Position numbers and translations under genes: made by a program. A model generated the notes under the pieces. It did not search any database. It was not told the DNA's origin and saw only the letters and a list, made by a program, of their open reading frames with translations. Below, one piece after another: positions 1,107 through 10,708 of a stretch of DNA of 11,050 nt. The stretch is from Chloroflexota bacterium (GTDB taxonomy: Bacteria > Chloroflexota > Dehalococcoidia > UBA2979): positions 1 through 11,050 of the forward strand of contig PBOW01000093.1 of the NCBI GenBank assembly GCA_002725365.1, read 5' to 3'. Position 1 is the stretch's first letter, and each line of letters begins with the position of its first letter.

Positions 1107-1892
1107 CTAGCTCAAGATCCAAATAGCGAGTAATGCAACCCCGACTACTTGTGCAAAAAGAACACTCCCTTGCTGATTTTCGTTCTTTAAGTTCTCTAAT
1201 AACGCAATGACGAGATATATCGCAGAAAAGGTAAGTACTCCGTTACCGGAATTTGAAAACGGCAGAAAATAGCCGAGCAATGACAATTGTGCTGCGATGG
1301 TCCCAGTCAGTACTCCGCTATATCGCCAATCGGAACGCTGATTCAGTTGTCGGAAATATATTTCAGTGAGGCAATAGGCGATCACGCCAACCAATATCGT
1401 GCGGAATATGTGGTCATCTACCGCGTCAAAGATAAATTGCAACAGACAAAACAGGGCCACATGGACAAAAATTTTACCTACGACAACCGGGAACGATTGC
1501 TCACTCGCTGAGTGCATATGAAGTGACATAGTCGCCCAGACCGACAGCCCGAAACAGCTACCCGACAATAGAGCAAAAGATGCTGAGTTCACATCTGACA
1601 GTATCACCTGCCGCATAACTAATAAGGCTACAAACAAAAACAGAGGTGATACCGAAAGATACTGAACATTGAGTCGGTCCATTTTTCCAACAGACCCGCC
1701 CCATCTCTGAACCCAGCCGAGAGAAATAATTATCAATAGAGCGTTGGCTACCACAATCCATTCAAACAAGGGGTCTGTTGGAATAGCAAAGTAGAAAGTT
1801 ACCGTAGAGATAAAACCAATAACGAAGCTAATAGCTAGGCTATCTTGGCTGATTTTTTCCGGACGACGAGAAAGCAAGATACTATTCCCCAC
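1107..1892 (-). CDS. Multi-pass membrane protein of unknown function (about nine helices)
   Basis: The 261-residue protein is almost entirely hydrophobic. About nine membrane helices can be seen at residues ~19-38, 42-60, 79-97, 105-124, 137-157, 162-180, 193-211, 217-234 and 242-260. They are joined by short polar loops, the longest being WVQRWGGSVGKMDRLN (60-75). There is no ATP-binding motif, no transporter signature I recognise and no cleavable signal peptide. The first ~18 residues are polar and basic, suggesting a cytoplasmic N terminus. The start is GTG (1892..1890), 11 bases after the amidohydrolase stop, without an obvious Shine-Dalgarno sequence, so it is probably the last protein gene of that operon and translated with its neighbour. 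I cannot assign a family. It could be a lineage-restricted integral membrane protein; its role is unknown. Confidence 0.8.
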   Translation of the reverse strand: MGNSILLSRRPEKISQDSLAISFVIGFISTVTFYFAIPTDPLFEWIVVANALLIIISLGWVQRWGGSVGKMDRLNVQYLSVSPLFLFVALLVMRQVILSDVNSASFALLSGSCFGLSVWATMSLHMHSASEQSFPVVVGKIFVHVALFCLLQFIFDAVDDHIFRTILVGVIAYCLTEIYFRQLNQRSDWRYSGVLTGTIAAQLSLLGYFLPFSNSGNGVLTFSAIYLVIALLENLKNENQQGSVLFAQVVGVALLAIWILS

Positions 1893-7000: not shown

Positions 7001-7689
7001 AACTCTCGAATCGAAGTCACTTCGTCTCCAAAAAATTCAATTCGTGTTGGATTGCTCTCGGTCACACCGAAAACATCGACGATTCCGCCTCTGAGGGAAA
7101 AATCACCCTGTGCCTCCACAAATGGTTGCCTCCGGTAACCTGCAGAGACTAAATCATCCAAAAATTCCTGCTGATTAAGGTTCTGGTTCACTCTCAGCAT
7201 CCCCGGACCAGTCAACAATTTTTCTTGGCTAAGAGTTCGCTCAGCCACCGCCTGAATACTTGTAACCACTACAGTCGGCAGCTCAGTCTTATTAAGCTCA
7301 TGAAGGGTAGATATCCTTTGTGCCGAGGGACTAACCCGAGTAGATTCACGTCCATAAGGGATTTGATTTCGCGACGGGAAAGAGAGAATCTGGCCTTCAC
7401 TCAGCCATATCCTCAGCTCGCTACCTAAATGCTCCGCCTCGCGATCACTCTTGGTGATCCAAATGATAGGTCCCGTCACGGACCCGGCTAAACTGGCAAT
7501 AACTGCGCTTCGAGCAGAATTCAATACATTCAGTCGAACAATCCCTCGAGCTTGGAGATGGTTCGAAACAGAATCAATATCGGGAGACCGAGCTATCCCA
7601 GCAAGCTGAGCCTTCAACTGACCGACGGCGATGGTACTGCTGCGATCAGTCACGTTGTTAGGGCTCAGATCTAGGTCAATATTTGTCAC
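4081..7689 (-). CDS. mfd: Transcription-repair coupling factor Mfd
   Basis: The 1202-residue protein is a full-length Mfd, the translocase that removes RNA polymerase stalled at DNA damage and recruits UvrA for nucleotide excision repair. In order it has a UvrB-like N-terminal module (~residues 45-240), a CarD-like RNA-polymerase-interacting domain (~498-565, with GDYVVSAEYGVARFVG) and the two RecA-like motor lobes. Motor motifs seen are Walker A GDVGFGKT (650-657), the DEEQ box (782-785), SATPIPRT (808-815) and QLRGRVGR (951-958). The C-terminal TRCF regulatory domain follows (~1058-1146). The start is GTG (7689..7687) and overlaps the pth stop by four bases (GTGA), indicating coupled translation. 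An AGGAGGA lies 14 bases upstream, a longer spacing than usual. The pth-mfd order is also known from Bacillus subtilis. No motif appears to be missing. Confidence 0.98.
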   Translation of the reverse strand: MTNIDLDLSPNNVTDRSSTIAVGQLKAQLAGIARSPDIDSVSNHLQARGIVRLNVLNSARSAVIASLAGSVTGPIIWITKSDREAEHLGSELRIWLSEGQILSFPSRNQIPYGRESTRVSPSAQRISTLHELNKTELPTVVVTSIQAVAERTLSQEKLLTGPGMLRVNQNLNQQEFLDDLVSAGYRRQPFVEAQGDFSLRGGIVDVFGVTESNPTRIEFFGDEVTSIREFSLGDQRSIAELKEIYVAPATEWLTATDRLTWLSKFIRPNGALSEDIGLLRSGLLPTSGMYGPLVLESSLLDHAPSGTLLVSDSRDELAAQLVSIEDVARDRRSQLFARNEIEESMPLPYIPRQSLMDAIFNTSHRIEFDPWLSGSDRDQLQTTFRQVEKYNGNLEAVAKNVSRRMVRGDRVILFTSQAQRLSEELSKIGIDLEVQSQLPRELNKSECALIQGFGGSGWTKELSDGELALQTDNEILGVSIVPVTPGKQSRSRYTNLTDISAGDYVVSAEYGVARFVGIIKRNVDNVTRDYLEIRFAEDGKLFLPTDRPLRLSKYVGPTNRPPRLTRLGTNEWRRSRIKASHAVQAVAGEYLSLYAARALKTGHAFSSDTEWQWELESAFPYEETEDQIEAIAAVKRDMEAARPMDRLICGDVGFGKTEIAMRAAFKAVMDGFQVVILCPTTVLAQQHYNSFRERMAGFPIKIEMLSGFRTGADAAAVARKVSDGEIDIVIGTHRVLEYRESKTALKTGTGVALPASDQLPEITVSSERSGLDFKNLGLAIIDEEQRFGVGHKDRLKEMRFEVDVLTLSATPIPRTLHMALSGIRDMSRVESAPAGRQAIETYVLEWDEDVVKTSIERELARGGQVYVVHNRVKTIDEFAESLRRLVPQAKILVGHGQMPKWHLESVMRNFVDGEADVLVSTTIIESGLDIPNVNTILIDRAQSLGLSQLYQLRGRVGRSHLQAYAYLFHYGSMNDLQQQRLSAIFESSELGSGLMVAQRDLELRGAGNLLGSQQSGHIAAVGLDLYMEMLAEAVERLKHELDGGAMELQELRLRQEKLRRITVEVNWSGEIPEAYVDDLEARLGLYMRISMVSTLTSIVELEDEIADRYGPIPRELFELFSIVKLRILAGSAHLTAVQHHGNKILFVAEKGDPFQTRNLPPMLPRSTRVGHLQLEVEEIDLDNGSPEAVQAFVRELALSKGV

Positions 7690-8414
7690 TGTCCGTTGTC
7701 CGATCCTCCTACTCGAGTATTGAGAGAATTCATCGCGGCCTCATTCCCGTTGGTCACTCCAATTTCGATACTGACTGCGACTTCCTCTAAAACGGTATTG
7801 ATAAGATCTCTATCACGTTTGTCAGGGTGTGCGAGCACCCAGTTTGCGACTTCTTCAGAATGATGAATTGGTTTGCCAGAGACGCTTCGAGGGCGGCCAA
7901 TCCCAATCCTAATTCTTGGGAATTGCTGTGTGCCGAGGTGGTTGATTATCGACTTCATGCCGTTATTACCACCATTACCCCCTAAGAGTCGCATACGTAC
8001 ATCCCCCACTTCAAGATCAATATCGTCACAAATGACTAACAACTGTGAGTTGGTATAACCATTCTTTTTCATAAATTTCACCAACGACGATCCCCCATCG
8101 TTATAAAAAGCGGACGGGTAAACCAGGTCTATATTTTGCCCTGCCATACGAACAGTCTTGACTATTTGATCTTTCTTACGCTTCTTACCATCTCCATACC
8201 GGGCATCGATAAAATCCAGGCAATCAACTCCTGTATTGTGGCGGGTCCCCGCATAACGCTCTCCTGGATTCCCCAACCCGAAAATTACTTTAGGAAAAGC
8301 GTCACCAATAGAATGGGCGTCTTCCTGATCAACGACTGGTTGAGCTCCTAAAAACTTGCGTTTAAAACTACTAAACTGATTACGAATTGGCACTAGATTA
8401 AGTTCCTTCTGCAT
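7686..8414 (-). CDS. pth: Peptidyl-tRNA hydrolase (Pth) with an N-terminal extension
   Basis: Pth releases peptides from prematurely dropped peptidyl-tRNAs. From the ATG at 8414..8412 the protein has 242 residues, longer than the ~190 usual for the family. The conserved core starts at residue ~42 (KVIFGLGNPGERYAGTRHNTG) and contains counterparts of the E. coli active-site residues: N49 (Ec N10), H59 (H20), N105 (N68), D130 (D93) and N151 (N114). Two changes stand out: the loop usually written GHGGHNG is GNGGNNG here, and the K-P-x-T-F-M-N segment is YPSAFYN. The first ~40 residues are polar and basic and not part of the standard fold. The start is uncertain: ATG at 8420 and GTG at 8393 (after AAGGA, ten bases upstream) are alternatives. 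The frame stays open to 8510, but that would overlap cofD antisense and is unlikely. It is followed immediately by mfd. Confidence 0.92.
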   Translation of the reverse strand: MQKELNLVPIRNQFSSFKRKFLGAQPVVDQEDAHSIGDAFPKVIFGLGNPGERYAGTRHNTGVDCLDFIDARYGDGKKRKKDQIVKTVRMAGQNIDLVYPSAFYNDGGSSLVKFMKKNGYTNSQLLVICDDIDLEVGDVRMRLLGGNGGNNGMKSIINHLGTQQFPRIRIGIGRPRSVSGKPIHHSEEVANWVLAHPDKRDRDLINTVLEEVAVSIEIGVTNGNEAAMNSLNTRVGGSDNGQ

Positions 8415-8420
8415 AATCAT

Positions 8421-8479
8421 AATAAATGCGTATACGCTAACTAAATTAAAAAATTCAATAGAAGAAAGCAAATACTCTT
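8421..8479. promoter_or_regulatory. Divergent pth/cofD control region
   Basis: This AT-rich stretch separates two divergent operons and must hold promoters for both. For pth, the minus strand shows TTGAAT (8458..8453), an 18-base spacer and TATACG (8434..8429), a fair promoter whose start point would fall just before the pth start codons. For cofD, the same palindromic TATACG is readable on the plus strand (8431-8436) but has a poor -35 match, and no better box stands out. The run of A and T bases between 8438 and 8463 could help DNA melting or act as an UP-like element. The calls are by eye and weak individually; that the region is regulatory is secure from the divergent layout. Confidence 0.45.
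8428..8437. repeat. Perfect 10-base palindrome GCGTATACGC in the pth/cofD divergent gap
   Basis: GCGTATACGC is a perfect self-complementary sequence. It sits 42 bases before the cofD GTG and 13 bases from the pth ATG on the other strand, and it overlaps the best candidate -10 box for pth. It could be an operator for a dimeric repressor acting on both operons, or a symmetric -10 element. No regulator gene is in the window, and a 10-base palindrome can also arise by chance. Confidence 0.35.
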
Positions 8480-9457
8480 GTGCCAAGTACAACCAACCAA
8501 GACCCGGCATCCGGCAAGCGACAAATAGTAATCATTGCGGGCGGAGTAGGTGCCGCACGATTTATAGACGGGATGCAACAAATCCATCCACCAGACTCAA
8601 TAAGTGTCATATGCAATGTAGGTGATGATCTCACATGGAATGGTCTGAAAGTCTGCCCCGATATCGATACCGTAATTTACACGCTCGCTGGAATCGAAGG
8701 AGAACTCGGATGGGGCATACAGGATGATTTTACCTCTATGCTTGACGAGCTCACAGTTCTTGGTGATGAAGCCTGGTTCAGAATAGGAAACCGTGATCTT
8801 GCTACCCATCTGATCAGAAATCGCATCCTGCAAAACGGCGGCACACTGAGCGAAGCAACTGGGGAACTTTGTCGTCGTCGCAATGTCAGCGTAAATGTTC
8901 GTCCAGTGACTGACGATAATCATCCAACGATGATCCGAACTACAGAGGGTATTTTGACCTTCCAAGAATATTTCGTAGCTCGCCAGAGTGAACCGGTGAT
9001 AACCAACATCGAGTTCCCAAACAAAGACTCTGCGCTCCCTGCCCCGGGGATTCTAGACTTAATCAGCACAGCTGAGAGCATTTACATCGCTCCGAGCAAT
9101 CCTTTTGTATCGATCGAGCCAATACTGCAAATACCCGGAATAAGAGACGCTCTGATTGAGTCCAAGGCTCCCAAAATTGCAATAAGCCCCATTATTGGAG
9201 GCAAAGCAATTAAAGGTCCGGCTGCCAAGATGCTATATGAGATGGGACATGATGTTTCGGCCCTTGGAGTGGCAAAGATCTACGCACCCTTCATAGATTT
9301 ATTCGTATATGACACTATCGATCAGGAATTAACACCTTCGATGGACTCACTGGCAATACAAACTGCCCATTGCGACACGATAATGAAAGATAGACTGGGC
9401 AGAAAACAGGTTGCGGTCAACGTAACAGCGCTTCTGAATGAAGTCCAAAAGTATTAG
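8480..9457 (+). CDS. cofD: CofD/FbiA: phospho-(enol)lactate transferase of F420 biosynthesis
   Basis: The 325-residue protein matches CofD/FbiA. This enzyme moves the phospholactyl or phosphoenolpyruvyl group from its guanylyl diphosphate onto the deazaflavin Fo, giving F420-0 or dehydro-F420-0. Family hallmarks are the N-terminal glycine-rich loop AGGVGAARFIDGM (residues 20-32), NVGDD (46-50), CPDIDT (59-64) with TLAG just after, GDEAWFRIGNRDLATHL (~94-110) and the SNPFVSIEPIL segment (~209-219). Length is normal for the family. The start is GTG; an in-frame TAG seven codons upstream rules out a much longer protein. The Shine-Dalgarno match (AGAAAG) is weak. It is the first gene of a two-gene operon with the CofC-reductase fusion 15 bases downstream, so the product and substrate of its reaction are handled by its partner. 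It acts in the cytoplasm. Confidence 0.96.
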   Translation: MPSTTNQDPASGKRQIVIIAGGVGAARFIDGMQQIHPPDSISVICNVGDDLTWNGLKVCPDIDTVIYTLAGIEGELGWGIQDDFTSMLDELTVLGDEAWFRIGNRDLATHLIRNRILQNGGTLSEATGELCRRRNVSVNVRPVTDDNHPTMIRTTEGILTFQEYFVARQSEPVITNIEFPNKDSALPAPGILDLISTAESIYIAPSNPFVSIEPILQIPGIRDALIESKAPKIAISPIIGGKAIKGPAAKMLYEMGHDVSALGVAKIYAPFIDLFVYDTIDQELTPSMDSLAIQTAHCDTIMKDRLGRKQVAVNVTALLNEVQKY

Positions 9458-9472: not shown

Positions 9473-10708
9473 ATGAACAATGCCACTGCAGTTATTGTTG
9501 CCATCCAGGCACCTGAGAAGGCCAAATCCAGATTGGCAAATGCGCTAATCCCATACCATAGGCGCACGCTGGTGACAGCGATGCTCACTGATTTCCTCGA
9601 AGCACTCCGATCAGTGCACTCGGGGCCGATAATAATCGTCACGGATTCTGATAATTATCAAGATATCGCGTCACAGACTGATGCGATTGTTGTTGAGGAT
9701 TCTGGCTCAGGATTTAATCAGGCTGCTATAGCAGGAATAGAATTTGCAGCAAACAATACGGAAGCTGATTCCATACTGGTTTTCCCTGGAGACATTCCAC
9801 AGGCAAGCTCAAACGACATCTCTGATTTAATTGCATCCCTGCAAGCATCACGAAAAGATGCGGTCACGCTGGTTGCCTCCAAAGATGGTGGCACTACTGG
9901 GTTAGGTCTACATATCCCAACCACTTATCAAACTCAGTTCGGCCTAGAATCGGCTCTCAAACATCGAGAGCAAGCAACACTCTTAGGGATGGGAGTTAAC
10001 GAGATGATTTTGTCTTCGTTAGAAATAGATATCGATACTATCGATGACCTTGAACAGGTGCAAAATATCGTTGGGAAACATACTGCGAGTGCACTTGAGA
10101 TAATTCTGTTCGAGAAGCATTTAGCTGAGCGTCGGTCTTTTCGGGGACTGCAGGGACCTCCCCTGACGCAAGAGGAGATTGAATCACTTATTCGCCTGGG
10201 ACTAAAGGCCCCAGCTCCACATCATTCGACTCCTTGGCGGTTTGTGATAGTTGGCTCAGAAAGCCGTCCAGTTCTTGCTGGCGAAATGGGAGCTAAATGG
10301 AAACAGGACCTACTCGGAGATGGTGTGCCTGAGGCTCAAATTAATAAAGCTCTGGCTAATTCCTCCGCGCGAATATTGTCAGCACCGACTCTGTTGCTCG
10401 GGTGTCTCGTGCAGGAAGGACTGAATACATACGCTGACTCTGAACGGGCATCGGCTGAATGGGGATTGGCACAACATTCTATCGGCGCCGCTCTTGAGAA
10501 TATATTGCTCGCTGCTCACGTCCGAAATTATGGTGCCTATTGGATTTCAGCACCGCTGTATGCTGGCGATAAAGTCCGGGCCGCGTTGCGACTTGAGCAT
10601 GAATGGATACCACAAGCCCTGATTGCTCTGGGCCGTAAGAATTCTGACTATAAACCGTTTGACCGGCCGGAACTGGACATCAATGATTACCTAATATGGC
10701 GAGAGTGA
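9473..10708 (+). CDS. CofC guanylyltransferase fused to an FbiB-type nitroreductase domain
   Basis: The 411-residue protein joins two F420-biosynthesis activities. Residues 1-~200 are CofC/FbiD, which links GTP to 2-phospholactate or phosphoenolpyruvate. Visible signs are APEKAKSRLA (13-22), VFPGDIPQ (~103-110), DGGTTGLGL (138-146), FGLESALKH (156-164) and IDIDTIDDL (185-193). After a short linker (~197-216), residues 217-411 form a flavin-binding nitroreductase domain: ERRSFRG (219-225), APAPHHSTPWRFVIV (246-260) and a glycine-proline-rich end. The APAPHH.(R/T)PWRF segment is characteristic of the C-terminal domain of mycobacterial FbiB, which reduces dehydro-F420-0. No CofE ligase domain is present, unlike in FbiB. 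The frame is continuous from the ATG. It follows cofD by 15 bases. The fusion implies the phosphoenolpyruvate route, but substrate choice is inferred. The family calls are strong; I do not know of a characterised protein with this architecture. Confidence 0.92.
   Translation: MNNATAVIVAIQAPEKAKSRLANALIPYHRRTLVTAMLTDFLEALRSVHSGPIIIVTDSDNYQDIASQTDAIVVEDSGSGFNQAAIAGIEFAANNTEADSILVFPGDIPQASSNDISDLIASLQASRKDAVTLVASKDGGTTGLGLHIPTTYQTQFGLESALKHREQATLLGMGVNEMILSSLEIDIDTIDDLEQVQNIVGKHTASALEIILFEKHLAERRSFRGLQGPPLTQEEIESLIRLGLKAPAPHHSTPWRFVIVGSESRPVLAGEMGAKWKQDLLGDGVPEAQINKALANSSARILSAPTLLLGCLVQEGLNTYADSERASAEWGLAQHSIGAALENILLAAHVRNYGAYWISAPLYAGDKVRAALRLEHEWIPQALIALGRKNSDYKPFDRPELDINDYLIWRE

What the first reader, a model, noticed from the sequence alone, without database searches (positions are those of the whole stretch)
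9473..10708. Fusion of CofC with the FbiB-type dehydro-F420-0 reductase domain
One continuous frame carries a complete CofC domain (residues ~1-200) and a complete nitroreductase domain with the APAPHHSTPWRF signature of FbiB C-terminal domains (217-411). In mycobacteria this reductase is fused to CofE instead. Known biochemistry (CofC/FbiD using phosphoenolpyruvate, then CofD/FbiA making dehydro-F420-0, then the FbiB C-terminal domain reducing it) makes this a fusion of the first and third steps, with the second step encoded next door by cofD. I infer a channelled phosphoenolpyruvate-dependent pathway, possibly a CofD-bridged complex that protects the unstable guanylyl diphosphate.
Basis: partly seen in the sequence, partly recalled or inferred. 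Interest (0 to 1): 0.78.

Follow-up and report, generated by a model that had tools for sequence, protein, structure and literature searches.

The report
CofC fused to dehydro-F420 reductase
In one lineage of uncultured Chloroflexota, and apparently a second time in a relative, two neighbouring genes for making the redox cofactor F420 have merged into one protein that carries out the step before and the step after the enzyme encoded next door.

Summary
Window 9473-10708 is one intact 411-aa frame with a CofC/FbiD-type guanylyltransferase (residues ~7-198) and an FbiB-C-terminal/FbiE-type nitroreductase (~218-408), 15 bases downstream of cofD. It is not an assembly error: 4 of 4 held genomes of the genus carry it, with shared neighbours and dN/dS 0.11-0.14. 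In 16 sister-genus loci the same genes form cofD-cofC-fbiE with cofC and fbiE in different frames, 14 of 16 with overlapping stop and start, so the fusion is a merger of translationally coupled neighbours. A profile search found a more divergent fusion (P0091, 17-aa insert at the junction); trees place it elsewhere in the family (AU test against one fused clade p=0.003 on both domains, though 0.109 on the reductase alone), so the fusion probably arose twice. CofE is stand-alone in the 4 fused genomes. Best reading: a bifunctional enzyme for side-chain activation (PEP inferred) and dehydro-F420-0 reduction, working on either side of CofD. Substrate channelling and a CofD-bridged complex remain untested; FbiC is a published case of fused F420 domains that work independently. 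I found no published description in the held library, but the key Thermomicrobia paper (Braga 2020) could not be read.

The parts
9473..10708 (+). Fused gene: CofC-type guanylyltransferase + FbiE/FbiB-C-type nitroreductase, 411 aa
   Evidence: Single open frame; both Pfam domains over cut-off; 4 of 4 held genus genomes
9473..10087 (+). CofC domain, residues 1-205; metal/substrate residues D107, D186, D188, S160, G157 conserved; the FbiD K17 position is Q12
   Evidence: TIGR03552 over cut-off; residue mapping to FbiD and conservation
10088..10111 (+). Junction, residues 206-213, no added linker; modelled inside one helix (202-220) with low confidence
   Evidence: Alignment with sister CofC tails; AlphaFold2 model
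10112..10705 (+). FbiE/FbiB-C-terminal-type nitroreductase domain, residues 214-411; APAPHH motif, W276, D279, Y320, E329
   Evidence: PF00881 over cut-off; TIGR03553 match below cut-off; best PDB relative is the FbiB C-terminal domain 4XOM; tree
8480..9457 (+). cofD, transferase of the activated C3 acid to FO, 15 bases upstream of the fused gene
   Evidence: TIGR01819 284.6 bits over cut-off; upstream cofD in 16 of 16 sister loci with adjacent cofC-fbiE

Best explanation
The gene makes a bifunctional enzyme of coenzyme F420 biosynthesis. The N-terminal CofC/FbiD-type domain guanylylates a C3 acid, most likely phosphoenolpyruvate, to give EPPG. The separate CofD protein, encoded just upstream, transfers enolpyruvyl phosphate to FO, giving dehydro-F420-0. 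The C-terminal FMN-dependent FbiE-type domain then reduces dehydro-F420-0 to F420-0, and a stand-alone CofE adds glutamates. The gene arose by frame-merging of two neighbouring, translationally coupled genes (cofC and fbiE) in the ancestor of this Dehalococcoidia genus; a second merger probably happened in another lineage of the same family. Shown here: the domains, operon, frame difference in relatives, conservation and purifying selection. Inferred: catalysis, PEP as substrate, FMN use, and any benefit of the fusion (fixed 1:1 ratio, or docking on CofD).
For: Domains. The NTR half has the FbiB C-terminal domain as best PDB relative by sequence (101.4 bits vs 55.7 for the next) and by fold (ranks 1-11); the CofC half has FbiD as its best sequence relative, by a narrow margin over 3PG-type CofC (36.2 vs 34.9 bits), and as the top guanylyltransferase in the fold list (rank 12). 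A 92-row tree (quick method) puts the 7 fused NTRs, 27 sister NTRs, 18 FbiB C-termini and 6 other class NTRs in one group with 99% SH-aLRT, apart from 6 outgroup nitroreductases of the same family or class. FbiB positions P289, H290, H291 are kept in 7/7 fused, 27/27 sister and 18/18 FbiB rows; the P289 position is not Pro in 6/6 outgroup rows. CofC metal aspartates are kept in 7/7 fused rows, and the FbiD G163 position is Gly, not the Ser/Thr linked to 3-phosphoglycerate (PMC8764529 passages). Operon cofD-cofC-fbiE in 16 sister loci, 16 of 16 in different frames, 14 of 16 overlapping. Purifying selection. One stand-alone CofE in the own genome and a CofH match over cut-off in a 746-aa frame read as FbiC; CofE frames of 275-283 aa in 4 of 4 fused genomes.
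Against: The TIGR03553 score is below its curated cut-off. FbiB R337 and M372, proposed by docking to hold the substrate (PMC6450877 section 7), are N296 and L332 in 7/7 fused rows; sisters keep R in 24/27 but have L in 21/27. FbiD K17 is Q12 in 7/7 fused rows and Q in 10/19 sisters. The tree carries the tool's long-branch warnings. PMC8764529 states that CofC assays cannot tell which of 2-PL or PEP is used in vivo (passage). I saw no biochemistry on any member of this family.
Confidence: 0.85

Rival explanations
1. An extension of the best reading: the fusion adds true metabolic coupling.
For: Two probably independent fusions of the same pair. CofC/FbiD is active only with CofD/FbiA (PMC6450877 section 6) and FbiA copurifies with dehydro-F420-0 (PMC7253369 passages). 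The modelled junction is one helix.
Against: One fusion has no linker and the other a 17-aa insert, so no fixed geometry is conserved; helix confidence at the junction is low and pTM is 0.57. FbiC domains, also fused, work independently (PMC8498797 passage). In relatives the genes are already adjacent and translationally coupled, so merger can be neutral.
Confidence: 0.25
2. The opposite reading of the same enzyme: a near-neutral merger, a frameshift product of an overlapping gene pair, with no functional difference from separate CofC and FbiE.
For: Stop/start overlap in 14 of 16 sister loci, and genes abutting or 3 bases apart in one frame with a single stop in 3 class genomes, make merger one small mutation away. 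10 of the 11 fused clusters seen lie close to one genus's proteins.
Against: The fused frame has been kept since synonymous sites saturated between the two subclades, and a second fusion probably exists. Neither excludes neutrality.
Confidence: 0.6
3. The reductase half has drifted to another flavin reaction and no longer reduces dehydro-F420-0.
For: R337 to N and M372 to L in 7/7 fused rows; TIGR03553 below cut-off.
Against: M372 to L is shared by 21/27 unfused relatives; an arginine sits four residues on (R300: 7/7 fused, 25/25 wider-phylum rows, but only 12/27 sisters, and FbiB rows have a gap there) in the modelled helix 287-303. Strong constraint on this half (dN/dS 0.05 and 0.13). The only other NTRs matched in G001, G002 and G003 are weak (24-27% identity) and fall in the outgroup; none was matched in G000, so no other reductase candidate was seen, in drafts that are 72-92% complete.
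Confidence: 0.08
4. Assembly or sequencing artefact that hides a stop or frameshift between two genes.
For: The window is a short contig of a fragmented draft genome (97 contigs, 76.5% complete).
Against: Same fused frame in 4 of 4 held genus genomes and 10 protein clusters; low dN/dS on both sides and, on 21 codons only, across the junction (0.04 and 0.26).
Confidence: 0.01

Closest known systems
FbiB of mycobacteria (CofE fused to the same kind of reductase domain)
   Same: FMN-binding dehydro-F420-0 reductase domain, C-terminal in a two-domain F420-biosynthesis protein; nearest solved structure (4XOM/4XOO/4XOQ).
   Different: N-terminal partner is CofC, not CofE; CofE is a separate gene here.
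FbiE of Thermomicrobium roseum (stand-alone reductase; review PMC8498797, sections 27 and 33 read)
   Same: Same predicted reaction and also from Chloroflexota.
   Different: Stand-alone there, fused to CofC here. No named T. roseum sequence was compared here; the source paper is not held.
FbiD/CofC guanylyltransferases (FbiD 6BWG/6BWH, CofC 2I5E, 3PG-type 7P97)
   Same: Fold, metal aspartates, carboxylate-binding Ser and Gly.
   Different: Carries a C-terminal reductase; FbiD K17 replaced by Q; L92 replaced by F.
FbiC (CofG-CofH fusion)
   Same: Another fusion in the same pathway; the window's own genome has a 746-aa frame that I read as FbiC.
   Different: Joins consecutive steps of FO synthesis; here the joined steps flank a third enzyme.

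Membership tests
CofC/FbiD guanylyltransferase | Curated family model over cut-off | tested here: met
   TIGR03552 136.7 bits, cut-off 105; PF01983 70.7, cut-off 22
CofC/FbiD guanylyltransferase | Three metal-binding aspartates (FbiD D116, D188, D190) and carboxylate-binding S166 | tested here: met
   D107, D186, D188, S160; 7/7 fused rows
CofC/FbiD guanylyltransferase | Substrate-contacting K17 and L92 of FbiD (not constant in the family: the passage reports that the K17 equivalent does not touch the substrate in MycB3-CofC) | tested here: not met
   Q12 and F81 in 7/7 fused rows; K18 (FbiD K23) kept 7/7; Q also in 10/19 unfused sisters
CofC/FbiD guanylyltransferase | Use of PEP rather than 2-phospholactate | not testable with these tools
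   Needs an enzyme assay with cognate CofD
3PG-type CofC | Ser/Thr at the FbiD G163 position | tested here: not met
   G157, 7/7 fused rows
FbiE / FbiB C-terminal reductase | Nitroreductase fold with the FbiB C-terminal domain as closest structure | tested here: met
   PF00881 over cut-off; 4XOM best by sequence; FbiB chains ranks 1-11 by fold
FbiE / FbiB C-terminal reductase | Curated TIGR03553 cut-off | tested here: not met
   135.1 bits against 249.55. By NCBIfam's own threshold it is not a member; I call it FbiE-type by tree and operon, and take the model to be tuned to actinobacterial fusions (inference)
FbiE / FbiB C-terminal reductase | Phylogenetic grouping with FbiB C-termini apart from other NTRs | tested here: met
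   99% SH-aLRT group of 58 of 92 rows, quick method, with long-branch warnings
FbiE / FbiB C-terminal reductase | Docking-derived substrate residues P289, R337, M372 | tested here: inconclusive
   P289 kept; R337 is N, M372 is L; R300 four residues on may stand in
FbiE / FbiB C-terminal reductase | FMNH2-dependent reduction of dehydro-F420-0 | not testable with these tools
   Needs an assay
FbiB (CofE-NTR fusion) | N-terminal CofE (PF01996) domain | tested here: not met
   PF01983 and no PF01996 match; CofE stand-alone on another contig

The most novel reading that the evidence does not exclude
CofC and the dehydro-F420 reductase have fused at least twice because both halves dock on CofD, making a three-enzyme F420-0 assembly in which CofD sits between its substrate donor and the enzyme that removes its product. 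The fusion would then mark genomes committed to the PEP route.
Probability: 0.25. Interest if true: 0.65.

Novelty: new variant of a known kind. Interest (0 to 1): 0.45.

Why it matters
It is a domain pairing that I did not find described: the known F420-biosynthesis fusions join CofG-CofH (FbiC) and CofE-reductase (FbiB), this one joins CofC and the reductase. Fusing the enzyme that activates the side chain to the enzyme that is needed only if that side chain is enolpyruvyl supports a PEP route in these uncultured Chloroflexota, and gives a single gene with which to test whether CofC, CofD and the reductase act as a complex. It may also be a compact part for making F420 in other hosts.

Tried and rejected
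Artefact (missed stop or frameshift): rejected by 4 of 4 held genus genomes, 10 clusters and dN/dS.

Other fusions in the class and phylum. In the 393-genome class sample, apart from the 4 genus genomes, three further matches span both domains (G073, G076, G304) and two span them in part (G274, G245); each of the five holds one stop codon. The first three are separate genes abutting (G073, G076) or 3 bases apart (G304); the other two were not looked at further. In the 400-genome phylum sample only G000 had a stop-free match across both domains among the rows listed (the match table was truncated at its weak end, and at most 4 candidates per genome were scored). A long frame in G019 looked like a fusion, but its upstream part is antisense to a gene whose product I recognised by eye as histidyl-tRNA synthetase (name recalled, no domain scan run), so it was dropped.

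A protein search with the CofC half alone returned only the two 411-aa clusters and missed the 414-aa ones already known, so that search is insensitive and its negative result is not used. The alignment search found P0091; about 8000 candidates were scored in each, so more divergent fusions may exist. P0091's DNA was not fetched: the order search (44 genomes, the same set as the family search) did not hold it.

The NTR-only AU test does not reject a single fused clade (p 0.109); the CofC-only test (p 0.007) and the concatenated test (p 0.003) do. The grouping was named after P0091 was noticed, so the p values are indicative. In one search P0091 sits unresolved near L017, L034 and L108. The nearest unfused relatives of the genus clade differ between the CofC tree and the NTR tree, in part with long branches.

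A sigma-70-type pattern search of the window gave no more hits than chance (8 found, 11.2 expected).

Rows left out: the NTR set (92 rows) dropped the partial L026 and L028 and duplicate loci, and used 18 FbiB rows (every fourth of P0012-P0089, over 380 aa); the CofC trees left out 7 wider-phylum rows, several partial, and one search also left out P0090. Of the 10 genus-type fused clusters, 3 (P0003, P0007, P0009) were put in the trees beside the 4 genome sequences. Start codons were chosen mechanically; L018 has a second possible start.

Full report
What is there. The window holds one 1236-base gene at 9473-10708 (+), 411 codons and a stop, with no internal stop. Pfam and NCBIfam place CofC at residues 6-196 and 7-198, and a nitroreductase at 218-388 and 218-408. 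CofC passes its curated cut-off; the FbiB C-terminal model matches at E 2.4e-39 but below its curated cut-off (135.1 against 249.55 bits). cofD ends 15 bases upstream (coordinates) and passes its cut-off. The window is a whole contig (C89) of a 1.49-Mb, 97-contig, 76.5%-complete draft genome. A congener, G003, appears to be the public record DEAP01000021.1, Dehalococcoidia bacterium UBA2979 (equal contig length 19,596). That this group is one of the marine SAR202 lineages is my recollection and was not tested.

It is real and old. 4 of 4 held genomes of the genus carry the same stop-free fusion, and the protein database gives 10 fused clusters of 411 or 414 aa close to them, with 194 member sequences by the table's own counts. 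Neighbours are shared: cofD, pth, mfd and the alpha/beta hydrolase in G001, G002 and the UBA2979 record, and the HAD gene too in the two (G001, G002) where the stretch reached it. dN/dS over the gene is 0.11 (window vs G003) and 0.14 (G001 vs G002); synonymous change is saturated between the two subclades.

How it arose. In the 44-genome family set (E up to 1e-15; adjacency) I count 4 fused, 16 with adjacent cofC-fbiE, 10 with both but on other contigs or apart, 4 with the reductase only, 2 with CofC only and 8 with neither. 16 of 16 adjacent loci have cofD upstream and the two genes in different frames; in 14 of 16 the reductase start codon overlaps the cofC stop by 4, 8 or 14 bases. In three genomes of other families (G073, G076, G304) the genes abut, or lie 3 bases apart, in one frame with a single stop between them. 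So the fusion is a merger of translationally coupled neighbours. Compared with the unfused CofC proteins, the fused ones lack most of the C-terminal tail and run into the reductase without a linker.

A second fusion. A profile search turned up P0091, 428 aa, on 14 contigs, 44% identical to the window protein, with both Pfam domains and a 17-aa insert at the junction. In the CofC tree it falls with L017, L034 and L108 (98/97 support), away from the genus clade (100/100); in the reductase tree it again falls away from that clade (98/90), in a set of 6 with 99/98 support that holds L017, L034 and the reductase of L108's genome. One clade for all fused proteins is rejected by CofC (p-AU 0.007) and by both domains together (p-AU 0.003), not by the reductase alone (p-AU 0.109). 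Two origins are therefore likely. P0091's own DNA was not seen.

What the reductase half is. By sequence its best solved relative is the C-terminal domain of M. tuberculosis FbiB (4XOM, 101.4 bits; next 55.7 bits), and Foldseek ranks FbiB C-terminal chains 1-11. A 92-row tree (quick method, with the tool's long-branch warnings) puts the 7 fused and 27 sister reductases with 18 FbiB C-termini and 6 other class rows at 99% SH-aLRT, apart from 6 other nitroreductases, among them the paralogues of G001, G002 and G003; 25 wider-phylum rows, 2 class rows and one stand-alone protein also lie outside that group. FbiB P289, H290 and H291, and window W276, D279, Y320 and E329, are kept in all or nearly all fused, sister and FbiB rows (lowest: Y320 in 25 of 27 sisters). 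Two docking-derived contacts of FbiB (PMC6450877, section 7 read) differ: R337 is N in 7 of 7 fused rows though R in 24 of 27 sisters, and M372 is L in 7 of 7 fused and 21 of 27 sisters. P0091 keeps an arginine at the R337 position (alignment). In the genus an arginine four residues later (R300) is present in 7 of 7 fused rows and lies in the same modelled helix; it is present in only 12 of 27 sisters. I read the domain as a dehydro-F420 reductase of FbiE type; this is inference from kinship and operon, not assay, and the curated FbiB C-terminal threshold is not met.

What the CofC half is. D107, D186, D188, S160 and G157 match FbiD D116, D188, D190, S166 and G163 (residues from PMC6450877 section 6; mapping) and are kept in 7 of 7 fused and 19 of 19 sister rows. 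Gly at the G163 position argues against 3-phosphoglycerate (PMC8764529 passages). FbiD K17 is Q12 and L92 is F81; K17 is not conserved in the unfused sisters either (K in 4 of 19). Whether PEP or 2-phospholactate is used cannot be read from CofC; the fusion with a dehydro-F420 reductase is the argument for PEP.

Rest of the pathway. The own genome has a CofH match over cut-off in a 746-aa open frame cut by a contig end, with two weaker matches to the same model in that frame; I read it as FbiC, though no CofG model was run. It has one stand-alone CofE (276-aa open frame) and 27 matches to the luciferase-like family, which contains many F420-dependent enzymes (that link is general knowledge). 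CofE frames in the four fused genomes are 275-283 aa, too short to hold a reductase as well. No other FbiB-like reductase was matched in them, with the caveat that three of the four are 72-77% complete.

Mechanism. The order CofC, CofD, reductase (with CofE) is established for mycobacteria (PMC6450877 sections 6-7; PMC7253369 passages; PMC8498797 section 27). Here the enzymes before and after CofD are one protein. Published facts that make coupling plausible: FbiD/CofC act only with FbiA/CofD, and FbiA copurifies with dehydro-F420-0. Facts against assuming it: FbiC's fused domains work independently (PMC8498797 passage), the two fusions have different junctions, and the model gives no reliable domain orientation (pTM 0.57, pLDDT under 50 at 217-219). 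I put a functional coupling at 0.25 and a mostly neutral merger at 0.6; the bifunctional identity itself stands at 0.85.

In print? Searches of the held library and passages or sections of PMC8498797, PMC8764529, PMC6450877, PMC7253369 and PMC6946804 showed FbiB and FbiC fusions and a stand-alone FbiE, but no CofC-reductase fusion. None of these papers was read whole, and no supplements were seen. Braga et al. 2020 (PMC7267189) was not held, so prior mention cannot be excluded. The one fused protein with a source name in the table is called 2-phospho-L-lactate guanylyltransferase, after its first half only (P0004).

Verdict. A true domain arrangement of known enzymes, not remarked on in what I could search: a new variant of a known kind, made more interesting by its probable double origin.

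Noticed in passing
L062, L072, L106 (G073, G076, G304): In three genomes of other families of the class cofC and fbiE abut (G073, G076) or lie 3 bases apart (G304) in the same frame with one stop codon between them, one step short of a fusion.
   Followed up: partly
Family set: Eight of 44 family genomes show neither CofC nor the reductase at E 1e-15, yet six of these eight have CofE; either divergent genes, gaps in the assemblies or a partial pathway.
   Followed up: no
L132, L133 (G004, G019): In one genus the reductase gene lies apart from cofC, between what look by eye like hisS and relA/spoT genes (names recalled from the translations).
   Followed up: partly
window 7686-8510 (-): The peptidyl-tRNA hydrolase frame has about 74 residues before its Pfam domain and its listed start overlaps the listed cofD start by 31 bases; residues from 39 on align in two congeners.
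   Followed up: no
G000, whole genome: 27 matches to the luciferase-like family PF00296 in a 1.49-Mb draft genome, 26 of them at E below 1e-26.
   Followed up: no
window 1107-1892 (-): 261-aa protein with no Pfam match at E 0.001.
   Followed up: no
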